NCBI GenBank assembly: GCA_030568195.1
Contig: JAJLTO010000005.1
Coordinates: 310,001 to 374,000, forward strand
Source of the DNA: Dipodascopsis uninucleata var. uninucleata
Lineage: Eukaryota; Ascomycota; Lipomycetes; Lipomycetales; Lipomycetaceae
DNA: 64,000 nucleotides
Reading direction: 5' to 3'
Made by a program: the position numbers and the translations under genes. Under the pieces are notes generated by a model, which saw only the letters and a program-made list of their open reading frames with translations, ran no database searches and was not told the origin of the DNA. This document shows, in pieces, positions 7,107 through 49,440 of this stretch. Each line of letters begins with the position of its first letter. Within the stretch, counting starts at the first letter, position 1.

Positions 7107-8143
7107 ATGTCTGTTATATTTGCTTCTGCGGGGTATGATCATACCATCAGATTCTGGGAAGCATTGTCAGGCATCTGTCAACGAACAATCCAACATCCCG
7201 ATTCTCAAGTTAATAGGCTTGCGATCACTCCAGATAAGAGATTTTTGGCAGCAGCAGGAAGATTAAGTGTCAAATTATATGATATACGTGGATCAAATCC
7301 TAATCCGGTAAGCAAGTCGTTCTTTTATTATTGTCGACTGTTCTTCGCGGCATGATAAGTAATACCTAGTAAAAACTATGTAGTAATGCGTGCTTATTTA
7401 ACTTACTATGCTGACAAGTTATAAATAACAAATAGGTAACGGTATTCGAGGGCCATACCAATAATGTGACTGCAGTAGCTTTCCAAAGTGATGGAAAATG
7501 GATGGTGACGTCTTCTGAAGACGGAACAGTGAAAGTGTGGGATATGAGGGCACCGATGGTCCAAAGGAATTATAAACATAGTACACCAGTTAATGATGTT
7601 GTAATCCATCCCAACCAGGGAGAACTCATAAGTTGTGATGAAGGAGGCAATGTTCAAATTTGGGATCTTGGAGAGAATACATGTACTCATCAGCTGATTC
7701 CTCAAGATGATGTACCTGTAAGATCTGTGTCTGTTGCGACGGATGGCTCAATGGTTGTTGCTGGTAATAATTGGGGAAATTGCTACGTATGGAAAATGGT
7801 TAATAGTAGGGACACAACATCACTACACCCAGTTACCAAGTTTCGAGGACATACGAAGTACATTACCAGAGTGCTCTTGTCGCCGGACGTGAAGCACCTG
7901 GCCACTTGTTCCGCCGACCATACTGCTAGGATATGGTCAACAGATGGCTTTGGTATCGAAACAACTCTGAAAGGCCATCAAAGATGGGTCTGGGATTGTG
8001 CATTTAGTGCTGATTCAGCATACCTTGTTACAGCTTGTTCTGATCACTATGCTCGCTTGTGGGAGTTATCATCAGGACAGATTATTAGACAATATAATGG
8101 CCATCATAAAGGTGCTGTCTGTGTTGCTCTAAACGACGTTTAA
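7107..8143 (+). CDS. LST8: TOR complex subunit Lst8 (mLST8/Wat1), 2 exons
   Basis: Exons are 7107-7307 and 7436-8143 and encode 302 aa, close to the usual Lst8 length. The protein is a seven-bladed WD40 propeller throughout. Visible repeat cores include [49 protein letters not shown] and [11 protein letters not shown], and the family-specific [20 protein letters not shown] appears near the C-terminus. Lst8 binds the kinase domain of Tor in both TORC1 and TORC2 and stabilises the active site. The 128-nt intron begins GTAAGC and ends AATAG and is in phase 0. The ATG directly precedes the first blade, so the start is secure. Confidence 0.95.
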
Positions 8144-19216: not shown

Positions 19217-20875
19217 ATGGCCAGACGAAGTGATGTATCACCCTGGCAGTCTCAAGCCGCCGCAACCACCACTACAACTACAACTGCGGCGACTACAACA
19301 GTGCATCGCATGAATAACAGCTTGTCGCTTCCTCCTCCTCCAACGGCTTCTAATGGCACTAATGCGAGCGGAGGTGATCCTCGACTCGAAGATATGATAT
19401 CCTGGATTAGTACGGGAGTTCAGTACTTAGCCGGTGAGCTAGCCTCTTCGCGCGATGAACGACAATCTAACTTTGAGACGCTTCACCAAAAAATCAATAT
19501 GCTGCAGAACAGTATTATATCAATTGAGCGTGACCTGTCAAACTTCAGACAAGATCTTCATCGTGAAATTACAGCTAGGCGTGATGAAAAGAAGCGCGAC
19601 TATGATGAAATTATCCAATTGATTAAGTCTCAAGACACAGCTGCTTCTAATATATCCGAGATTGTTCGGGATGCCTCTTCTATTGTAGATGCAGCTTCGA
19701 GAATGCACCATTCTGCTTCTAGGCTTTGTGCTATTGGTGCTACTAATTCATCTACAAATATTTCTGGTTCGAATAGTAGTAGCTCGACTTCTAGTCTATC
19801 TGGCATTGTTGACAACAACTGTACTACAAATGGCTTACTTTCCGCTAGACAAACCCCTGGGATATCGCCTTTTATATCAAATGAGTTTAACTCAACCTCT
19901 TCTCTCGGCTTGATGAGGTCTCATGGTCCTGTTAATTCGGGCCAAGCTAATGGCCATGCTAATATTAATGGAAGTTTATCTGAGTCAGGAAACTTAGTTG
20001 ATGGTGCTGGTGCCACATCTAGCCCTCACAACATACATGACCAAGGTCAATTGACAGAAATGCGCATGGCAGATCCTTCACAACTATCGCATGTGTCACA
20101 TCATCAAGTTCAGCGCATAGTACGACATAGCGTTGGGCAACAGAGCCAGCCTGATTTCTCACTGCAAGAACATAGCCAGCAAAGCCATATTTCTCAGCAG
20201 CCTTCCCAGACCTCTTCTCTTCAGATATCGTCCTCCCGGCGTCAGAACCACCTAAGATCTCAAGTGCAGACTTCAGATCAGCAACGACAGCAATTATCCA
20301 ATATCTCTGATCAAACTGGTACGCCAATGAACAAAGAGCAAGACCACCATGACCCAAGGTCTAATCAGCAGCATAGTGAATCGGTACAATCTAGATCTCT
20401 GATAAGACCAATAGATGACGTGGAGTCTGCCGAGTCGAGACCTCATCGGTCGAGTCGACAAGAATCTGGACAAGACTTGAGAAACGTACGTCAGAGGCGT
20501 AGTCCTTCCGATAGTCGAACTGGCAGTGCCTATATATCTAGTAGTCAGCAGGGTGTTAGTTATATTATGGCCCAGGATCTGGGTTCAGTCAAAGAGATAT
20601 GGACGGAGTACTCGCAAGGGCTTGATGGTGGACCTGCAATTCGAGATCTCGAGCGCGAAGAGGGAACTGCTTGGAGAGGTGGACCTCGCTCAGCACAGAG
20701 TCGAAAGTTTCAGCGACGAAAGGCTCTTTATGATGCTATAGAGAGTGGGATTGCAAATGGTAAAACAATAGATGAATGCTGCGATGCTTTGGAGCGAATT
20801 AGAGTAAGAGAGGATGGCACTATAGCATCTATGACCTGGCTTTTGCAACATATTCCAAGAGATCTCTTCATGTAA
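19217..20875 (+). CDS. Transcription factor with GCR1_C DNA-binding domain
   Basis: A single exon encodes 552 aa. Poly-Thr/Ala and poly-Pro tracts occupy the N-terminus. Residues about 85-135 form a charged helical segment that is likely a coiled coil for dimerisation. The middle is Ser/Gln-rich and disordered. Residues about 450-545 match the GCR1_C (Gcr1/Msn1/Hot1-type) DNA-binding fold, with the hallmark KEIWTEYSQGLDGGPAIRDLE, then a Trp-containing linker, RKFQRRKALYDAIES and a final helix. Family members activate glycolytic genes (Gcr1) or osmostress and starvation genes (Hot1, Msn1). Which of these roles this protein has cannot be read from the sequence. Confidence 0.85.
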   Translation: MARRSDVSPWQSQAAATTTTTTTAATTTVHRMNNSLSLPPPPTASNGTNASGGDPRLEDMISWISTGVQYLAGELASSRDERQSNFETLHQKINMLQNSIISIERDLSNFRQDLHREITARRDEKKRDYDEIIQLIKSQDTAASNISEIVRDASSIVDAASRMHHSASRLCAIGATNSSTNISGSNSSSSTSSLSGIVDNNCTTNGLLSARQTPGISPFISNEFNSTSSLGLMRSHGPVNSGQANGHANINGSLSESGNLVDGAGATSSPHNIHDQGQLTEMRMADPSQLSHVSHHQVQRIVRHSVGQQSQPDFSLQEHSQQSHISQQPSQTSSLQISSSRRQNHLRSQVQTSDQQRQQLSNISDQTGTPMNKEQDHHDPRSNQQHSESVQSRSLIRPIDDVESAESRPHRSSRQESGQDLRNVRQRRSPSDSRTGSAYISSSQQGVSYIMAQDLGSVKEIWTEYSQGLDGGPAIRDLEREEGTAWRGGPRSAQSRKFQRRKALYDAIESGIANGKTIDECCDALERIRVREDGTIASMTWLLQHIPRDLFM

Positions 20876-25425: not shown

Positions 25426-26267
25426 TTACTCTTTAGTCTTCTGTGTACCTCTAAGCAGACCAGTTCTTCTGGCAGCAATAAGACCAGCCTTCTGTCCAGC
25501 AACAGCACCTCTGCTAATGGTAGAAGCCTTACCAATATGCTGATGGTTACCACCACCATGTGGATGGTCAACTGGATTCATAGCGACACCACGAGTCTTA
25601 GGCCAAGAGTTTCTCTTGACCTTGTATTTATGGTAAGCACGACCAGCCTTAAGCAGCGGCTTGTCAATACGACCACCACCTGCAACGACACCAATGACAC
25701 CACGAGCTGAAGAAGAAACAACCTTCTTAGCACCAGAAGGAAGTTTCAGACGTGTTTTGCCTTCATCAGGATTATGTCCAATGACGATAGCATAATTTCC
25801 AGAAGTTCTAGCAATAGCACCTCTATCACCAACCTTCTCTTCAACATTGCTAACAATAGTACCCTCCGGAACAGAACCTAAAGGAAGGACATTGCCGACA
25901 TTAAGAGCAGCCTTCTTACCAGCATAGATAAACTGTCCAGTGTAGATACCCTCGTTGGCAATAAATGTCTCCTCGACCATCTTATACTTGTAAGGGTCAC
26001 GGAATACAACCTTTGCGAGAGGAGCTCCTCGACCAGGGTCATGAACAATCTGCTTAACAACACCACGAATGTATCCGTGTCGCTCGGCATAGTCTAAAGT
26101 TCGCAATTTAGCAGCACCCTTTCGAAGACGAGTGTGCGAAGTGAAGATCGAGCCTGCACCCTTTCTCTGGTTACGGATAACACGACCTGAAAATCATGGT
26201 GTTAGCAGCCTTATGAATAAAAGCACTCTTATCTAAGTCCTTTTAACATTATTCAATACATACCCAT
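25426..26267 (-). CDS. RPL2: 60S ribosomal protein uL2 (Rpl2/L8), 2 exons
   Basis: Exon 1 is only 4 nt (26264-26267, ATGG). Exon 2 is 25426-26186. Together they encode 254 aa, exactly the usual yeast length. The start reads [20 protein letters not shown]. The conserved [15 protein letters not shown] loop, which lies near the peptidyl-transferase centre, is present close to the C-terminus, as is [14 protein letters not shown]. The gene is divergent to eL42 and shares its 436-bp promoter with it. Codon choice is strongly biased compared with neighbours, as expected for high expression. The start was deduced from the GTATGT donor directly after ATGG and the TTCAG acceptor before GTCGTG. Confidence 0.96.
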
Positions 26268-26412
26268 TGTGAATATATCCTTTAAAGGTATTTAATATTT
26301 TGTAATGAAGGGAAATAATCACCGAGATCTCTTCTACCAGGAGAACGTCAAAGTAAAGCTGCTGGTGATATGGGATCTTGCGCTTCTAGCAGTAAGTTGT
26401 ATAAATAAAACG

Positions 26413-26420
26413 CAGTCACA
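26413..26420 (+). promoter_or_regulatory. Homol-D box (CAGTCACA) on the uL2 side
   Basis: An exact match to the Homol-D core promoter element of fission-yeast ribosomal-protein genes, about 145 bp from the uL2 start codon. In that system Homol-D replaces the TATA box. Confidence 0.75.
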
Positions 26421-26533
26421 AAGTATTCTTCAATAGGGCTATGGATATTATAGGGTTATCATTGGCGTCAAGGTTATATTCTATCAGGCACATAGGATTG
26501 CGGGTGTCACTGAATAGATGTTCATTTCGACAA

Positions 26534-26549
26534 TGTACCCTAGGGTACA
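26534..26549. promoter_or_regulatory. 16-bp palindrome with ACCCTA/TAGGGT half-sites (Tbf1/Homol-E-like)
   Basis: TGTACCCTAGGGTACA is a perfect palindrome. ACCCTA-type sequences are bound by Tbf1 or act as Homol-E boosters next to Homol-D in ribosomal promoters. It lies between the two divergent genes, six bases before the second Homol-D box. Confidence 0.6.
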
Positions 26550-26554
26550 AAAAA

Positions 26555-26562
26555 CAGTCACA
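26555..26562 (+). promoter_or_regulatory. Homol-D box (CAGTCACA) on the eL42 side
   Basis: A second exact Homol-D octamer, about 140 bp from the eL42 start. The distance mirrors that of the uL2-side box. Confidence 0.75.
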
Positions 26563-26703
26563 CGGAAAGAACTCCTTACCGTGTATGCCCAAAGTGAGAA
26601 ACACTACGCCAGATTACGGTCAGAAAATATACTACCGAAATCTCTATTTGTATATTTTGTTAGGTGAAATTACTCTTTTGATTTATCATCAGCAATAGAC
26701 ACA

Positions 26704-27254
26704 ATGGGTACGTCTGATCATTATTGCTTAATGTTGGAAATATAAGAGATGTTTAAGAACATTAAAACAAGATTATAACTAATATATTATATTTAGTTAA
26801 TATTCCAAAGACTCGACGAACGTATTGCAAGTCAAAGGAGTGCAAGAAGCACACTCAGCACAAGGTCACCCAGTACAAGGTACGTATTTACGAGATACTC
26901 ACGGATATAATTTCAATTTATGTTAAGAATGTGTGATGGCTAATATGATTAAATATAGTCTGGTAAAGCTTCCCTTTATGCTCAGGGTAAGCGTCGTTAT
27001 GACCGAAAGCAGAGAGGTTATGGTGGTCAAACCAAGCAGGTTTTCCACAAGAAGGTATATGATCATTGAACATCTTGTCAATATAGGATAATTTTTGTGC
27101 TGACTGATGTATTTAGGCTAAAACCACAAAGAAGGTAGTTCTTCGTCTCGAGTGTACTGTCTGCAAGACTAAGGCCCAGCTGCCTTTGAAGCGATGCAAG
27201 CATTTCGAGCTTGGCGGTGACAAGAAGCAGAAGGGACAGGCTTTACAGTTCTAA
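26704..27254 (+). CDS. RPL42: 60S ribosomal protein eL42 (Rpl42/L36A), 4 exons, Gln at residue 56
   Basis: Exons are 26704-26707 (ATGG only), 26797-26879, 26959-27054 and 27117-27254, 321 nt giving 106 aa, the standard length. The sequence begins [20 protein letters not shown]. It has the four zinc-ligand Cys (two in YCKSKEC, two in [14 protein letters not shown]) and ends [10 protein letters not shown]. eL42 sits at the ribosomal E site. Residue 56, coded by CAG at 27037-27039 in [11 protein letters not shown], is Gln where cycloheximide-sensitive fungi have Pro. The gene is divergently transcribed from uL2. Confidence 0.96.
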
Positions 27255-49432: not shown

Positions 49433-49440
49433 CAGTCACA
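49433..49440 (+). promoter_or_regulatory. Homol-D box of uL23 gene
   Basis: An exact CAGTCACA about 135 bp before the uL23 start codon. It is preceded at 49406-49420 by AGGGTATAGCCCTA, which holds inverted AGGG/CCCT half-sites like those in the uL2/eL42 promoter. Confidence 0.75.

What the first reader, a model, noticed from the sequence alone, without database searches (positions are those of the whole stretch)
27037..27039. Natural Gln56 in eL42 predicts intrinsic cycloheximide resistance
Residue 56 of eL42 is Gln (context [11 protein letters not shown]) where cycloheximide-sensitive yeasts have Pro. The Pro56-to-Gln change in eL42 (L41/L36A) is a known determinant of cycloheximide resistance, for example in Candida maltosa and Kluyveromyces. 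The gene is complete and has the ribosomal promoter elements, so the residue should be present in most or all ribosomes if the gene is single-copy.
Basis: partly seen in the sequence, partly recalled or inferred. Interest (0 to 1): 0.7.

Follow-up and report, generated by a model that had tools for sequence, protein, structure and literature searches.

The report
Yeast ribosomal protein with cycloheximide-resistance residue
A yeast's gene for the ribosomal protein eL42 carries glutamine at position 56, a long-known change that makes ribosomes less sensitive to the antibiotic cycloheximide, so this is probably one more naturally resistant yeast rather than a new mechanism.

Summary
A complete four-exon eL42 gene lies at 26704-27254 (+), and codon 56 (CAG, 27037-27039) reads Gln. 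The other classical protein position, residue 38 of uL15 (Cyh2), is the ordinary Gln. eL42 is divergent from uL2 across 436 bases that hold two HomolD boxes, so the promoter claim largely holds. Gln56 is not new: of 16 distinct PDB eL42 sequences read (of 58 found), two have Gln (7pzy, recalled as Candida albicans; 6uz7, Kluyveromyces lactis) and 14 have Pro. Pro-to-Gln at this residue gives resistance in fission yeast, a choanoflagellate (modest) and CHO cells. Best reading: a normal ribosomal protein whose Gln56 weakens cycloheximide binding in the 60S E site. Phenotype, species and 25S rRNA could not be examined. Low interest.

The parts
26704..26707 (+). eL42 exon 1 (ATGG)
   Evidence: the protein search does not match so short an exon, it is placed by the start codon and GT...AG
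26797..26879 (+). eL42 exon 2
26959..27054 (+). eL42 exon 3, holds codon 56
27037..27039 (+). codon 56, CAG = Gln
27117..27254 (+). eL42 exon 4 with stop codon
26268..26703 (.). 436-base divergent intergenic stretch between the uL2 and eL42 start codons, the presumed shared promoter
26413..26420 (+). HomolD box CAGTCACA
   Evidence: consensus as in PMC10253590
26555..26562 (+). HomolD box CAGTCACA
26537..26546 (.). ACCCTAGGGT, HomolE-like palindrome (half-sites only, not the tandem consensus)
   Evidence: consensus
25426..26267 (-). uL2 gene, two exons (ATGG at 26267-26264; exon 2 26186-25426), 254 aa, neighbour in divergent orientation

Best explanation
This is the organism's ordinary eL42 gene, found at one locus only. 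Its protein lines the E site of the 60S subunit, where the CCA end of the leaving tRNA and cycloheximide both bind. Gln instead of Pro at residue 56 alters the loop beside the drug and lowers drug affinity while tRNA binding is kept, so essentially all ribosomes should be less sensitive to cycloheximide. Shown here: the residue, an intact gene, one locus in the assembly, ribosomal promoter motifs, ordinary uL15 residue 38. Inferred from other species: weaker drug binding and a resistant phenotype.
For: Gln56 in an intact frame; no second eL42 locus in 16,219,245 bases; HomolD boxes in the shared promoter; Tyr43 and Phe58 kept; the two other Gln56 sequences seen are 7pzy and 6uz7. Pro-to-Gln at this residue gives resistance in S. 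pombe on 100 ug/ml, in S. rosetta and in CHO cells at the equivalent residue 54. Chlorolissoclimide, which shares the site with cycloheximide, bonds to the backbone of Pro56 and Phe58 of eL42.
Against: No growth or binding data for this organism. In S. rosetta both strains were inhibited above 10 ng/ml, and in CHO cells the mutant ribosome was judged still sensitive for protein production, so the effect may be small. 25S rRNA (searches gave nothing) and efflux pumps were not examined. Residue 57 is Val here but Ile in both other Gln56 rows; its meaning is unknown.
Confidence: 0.8

Rival explanations
1. Gln56 is a lineage-specific state with little effect on the whole-cell phenotype; other parts of the site, or drug uptake and efflux, set sensitivity.
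For: Engineered Pro-to-Gln gave only a modest gain in S. rosetta. In the yeast Crinitomyces reliqui, growth with 0.01% and 0.1% cycloheximide is scored variable between strains of one species (its eL42 is not known to me), so cell-level resistance can vary for other reasons.
Against: The same change gives growth at 100 ug/ml in S. pombe and selectable resistance in CHO cells.
Confidence: 0.15
2. The Gln codon is an assembly or base-call error, or a second eL42 copy with Pro56 is missing from the assembly.
For: A conserved LSU rRNA primer pattern is not found in the assembly with up to 2 mismatches, so at least the rDNA may be missing; the completeness of the assembly is not stated.
Against: Two searches give only this locus; contigs are long (three of them 1.36 to 1.85 Mb); the reading frame around the codon is intact.
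Confidence: 0.05

Closest known systems
eL42 of PDB 7pzy (Candida albicans; organism recalled, the tool printed none)
   Same: Gln56, Tyr43 and Phe58; ordinary Gln38 in uL15; 97 of 106 residues identical
   Different: residue 57 Ile instead of Val; C. albicans reads CUG as Ser (recalled), whereas CUG looks like Leu here
eL42 of Kluyveromyces lactis (PDB 6uz7; KLLA tag on its uL2 chain)
   Same: natural Gln56; 92 of 106 residues identical
   Different: 6uz7 has Leu at uL15 residue 38, here it is Gln
Candida maltosa L41 (natural and inducible cycloheximide resistance)
   Same: Gln56 linked to resistance (recalled; reference entries only)
   Different: C. maltosa has several L41 genes, some inducible (recalled); here one locus was found
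Engineered rpl42-P56Q of S. pombe
   Same: Gln at residue 56 (PMC5982833 passages)
   Different: a laboratory change, here the residue is the natural state of the sequenced genome

Membership tests
eL42 ribosomal proteins (Pfam PF00935) | profile score above the curated cut-off | tested here: met
   115.1 bits against 25
eL42 ribosomal proteins (Pfam PF00935) | full-length, ungapped alignment to eL42 of solved fungal ribosomes | tested here: met
   106 of 106 positions aligned, 87 to 97 identical in six rows
natural Gln56-type cycloheximide resistance | Gln at residue 56 of eL42 | tested here: met
   codon CAG, 27037-27039
natural Gln56-type cycloheximide resistance | no Pro56 copy diluting the ribosome pool | tested here: met
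   one locus in the assembly; unassembled copies not excluded
natural Gln56-type cycloheximide resistance | ribosomes and cells resistant to the drug | not testable with these tools
   no culture or assay; species not identified
Cyh2-type resistance (uL15 residue 38 changed) | residue 38 of uL15 other than Gln | tested here: not met
   uL15 in L006 has Gln38, codon CAG. The other PF00828 hits read to me as a mitochondrial uL15-like protein and eL18

The most novel reading that the evidence does not exclude
Gln56 arose independently in an intron-rich, CUG-Leu budding yeast lineage and is fixed there: a further convergent gain of ribosomal cycloheximide resistance, reflecting long exposure to glutarimide-producing Streptomyces.
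Probability: 0.2. Interest if true: 0.3.

Novelty: new member of a known kind. Interest (0 to 1): 0.15.

Why it matters
If the prediction holds, cycloheximide would be a poor translation blocker in this yeast (ribosome profiling, protein-turnover chases) and a poor agent for selecting against it, and the usual Pro56Gln eL42 marker could not be used in it. It adds a case to a well-known story and opens no new question by itself.

Tried and rejected
Second eL42 copy: none found. Cyh2-type change in uL15: residue 38 is Gln. A first scripted splice of uL15 was out of frame by my own off-by-one error and was corrected; only the uL2 and eL42 CTG counts and the motif distance are used.

25S rRNA of the drug site: the conserved LSU primer gave 0 matches with up to 2 mismatches; Rfam searches of the own genome gave no usable answer three times. 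Untested, as are efflux pumps.

Species: not identified; no eukaryote collection is held. GCR1_C and Sld7_C domains (that these are budding-yeast domains is recalled) and the best PDB matches of eL42, uL2 and uL15 point to Saccharomycotina (for uL2 the very first row was a 345-aa chain with a repeated domain, 11he, whose main domain scores below the yeast rows). CUG codons: of seven in eL42, uL2 and uL15, four fall on residues that are Leu in the printed yeast rows (eL42 83, uL2 179 and 245, uL15 105) and three do not (uL2 148, uL15 11 and 107). A paper search with a guessed genus name did not help.

Papers not held: Kawai 1992, Takagi 1986, a C. albicans E-site paper that I recalled by DOI. 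Nine paper searches were made; from the titles and abstract starts listed I saw no survey of residue 56 across yeasts, in this open-licence library only.

Full report
Observation. The stretch 26704-27254 (+) splices into a complete 106-residue eL42 from four exons with GT...AG introns of 89, 79 and 62 bases. Pfam scores the protein at 115.1 bits for Ribosomal_L44 against a cut-off of 25. Phmmer finds 58 distinct PDB homologues at E up to 0.001. Six fungal rows align without gaps, so the column is the Pro56 column of the S. cerevisiae row.

Copy number. A PF00935 search of the window's own assembly (16,219,245 bases, 25 contigs) gives two matches, exons 3 and 4 of this gene. A search with the whole protein at E up to 10 gives three matches, exons 2 to 4 of this gene. 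The tool does not state completeness and warns that only the best candidates are scored and that withheld stretches read N.

Promoter. The uL2 gene (25426-26267, minus strand, 254 aa) lies head to head with eL42. The 436 bases between the two start codons hold two CAGTCACA sites (26413, 26555), of four in the window on both strands. Shuffled windows give a mean of 2.05 for the whole window, and 14 of 100 reach four, so the total is unremarkable; the clustering is not, since about 0.014 would be expected in 436 bases by proportion. CAGTCACA is the HomolD box of fission yeast ribosomal protein genes (PMC10253590, passages). Before the second box lies ACCCTAGGGT, which resembles HomolE half-sites but is not the tandem consensus, and the same paper reports that orientation matters. 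In this genome the octamer, in reverse, also begins 177 bases before the uL15 start codon.

Other parts of the drug site. The uL15 gene (L006, four exons, 149 aa) has Gln38, codon CAG. Four of the 39 uL15 rows were shown as alignments: 7pzy and 3j6x have Gln, 6uz7 has Leu and 4v7r has Glu at that position. In eL42, Tyr43 and Phe58 are kept; Tyr43 positions the tRNA CCA end in S. cerevisiae (PMC10123126, passages). The 25S rRNA could not be read.

How common the residue is. I read 16 of the 58 distinct PDB sequences. Gln56 occurs in two: 7pzy, which I recall to be C. albicans, and 6uz7, which is K. lactis by the KLLA tag on its uL2 chain. Pro occurs in 14: 9spj, 3j6x, 7olc, 7r81, five human-like rows (residue 54 of that protein) and five plant-like rows. 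The five human-like rows are nearly one sequence, so the independent number is smaller. The other 42 rows were not read; no frequency across eukaryotes follows.

Mechanism. PMC6451132 (passages) puts lissoclimides and cycloheximide in the 60S E site and describes hydrogen bonds of chlorolissoclimide to the backbone of eL42 Pro56 and Phe58. Changing this Pro to Gln gives resistance in S. pombe (growth on 100 ug/ml; PMC5982833, passages), in S. rosetta (better growth below 10 ng/ml, both strains inhibited above; PMC7314544, passages) and, at the equivalent residue 54 of human L36a, in CHO cells, where the authors still judge protein production to be drug-sensitive (PMC10172305, passages). It follows by inference that this organism's ribosomes are less sensitive. 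How large the effect is in the cell remains open; whole-cell resistance can vary within one yeast species, as in Crinitomyces reliqui (PMC8953626, passages).

Verdict. The finding is real and its interpretation is sound as a prediction, but it is a further instance of a determinant known since the early 1990s (Kawai 1992 and Dehoux 1993, seen as reference entries, not read). The organism is probably a budding yeast that reads CUG as Leu; its species is open. Interest is low.

Noticed in passing
window 25426-27254: uL2 and eL42 are a divergent pair, and both have a four-base first exon (ATGG) followed by an intron.
   Followed up: partly
PDB row 6uz7 (K. lactis by the KLLA tag): K. lactis uL15 shows Leu at residue 38, where S. 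cerevisiae has Gln, in addition to Gln56 in eL42; two changes at the drug site in one species.
   Followed up: no
own genome, 25 contigs: A conserved 24-base LSU rRNA primer site has no match with up to 2 mismatches, so the nuclear rDNA seems absent from the assembly, withheld or diverged there.
   Followed up: partly
window 19217-20875 (+): A 552-aa frame ends in a GCR1_C domain (74.8 bits), a regulator of glycolytic genes in yeasts; its neighbourhood was not studied.
   Followed up: no
window 7465-7472 (-) and 49433-49440 (+): Two further HomolD-type octamers whose neighbouring genes were not examined; chance is a fair explanation.
   Followed up: no
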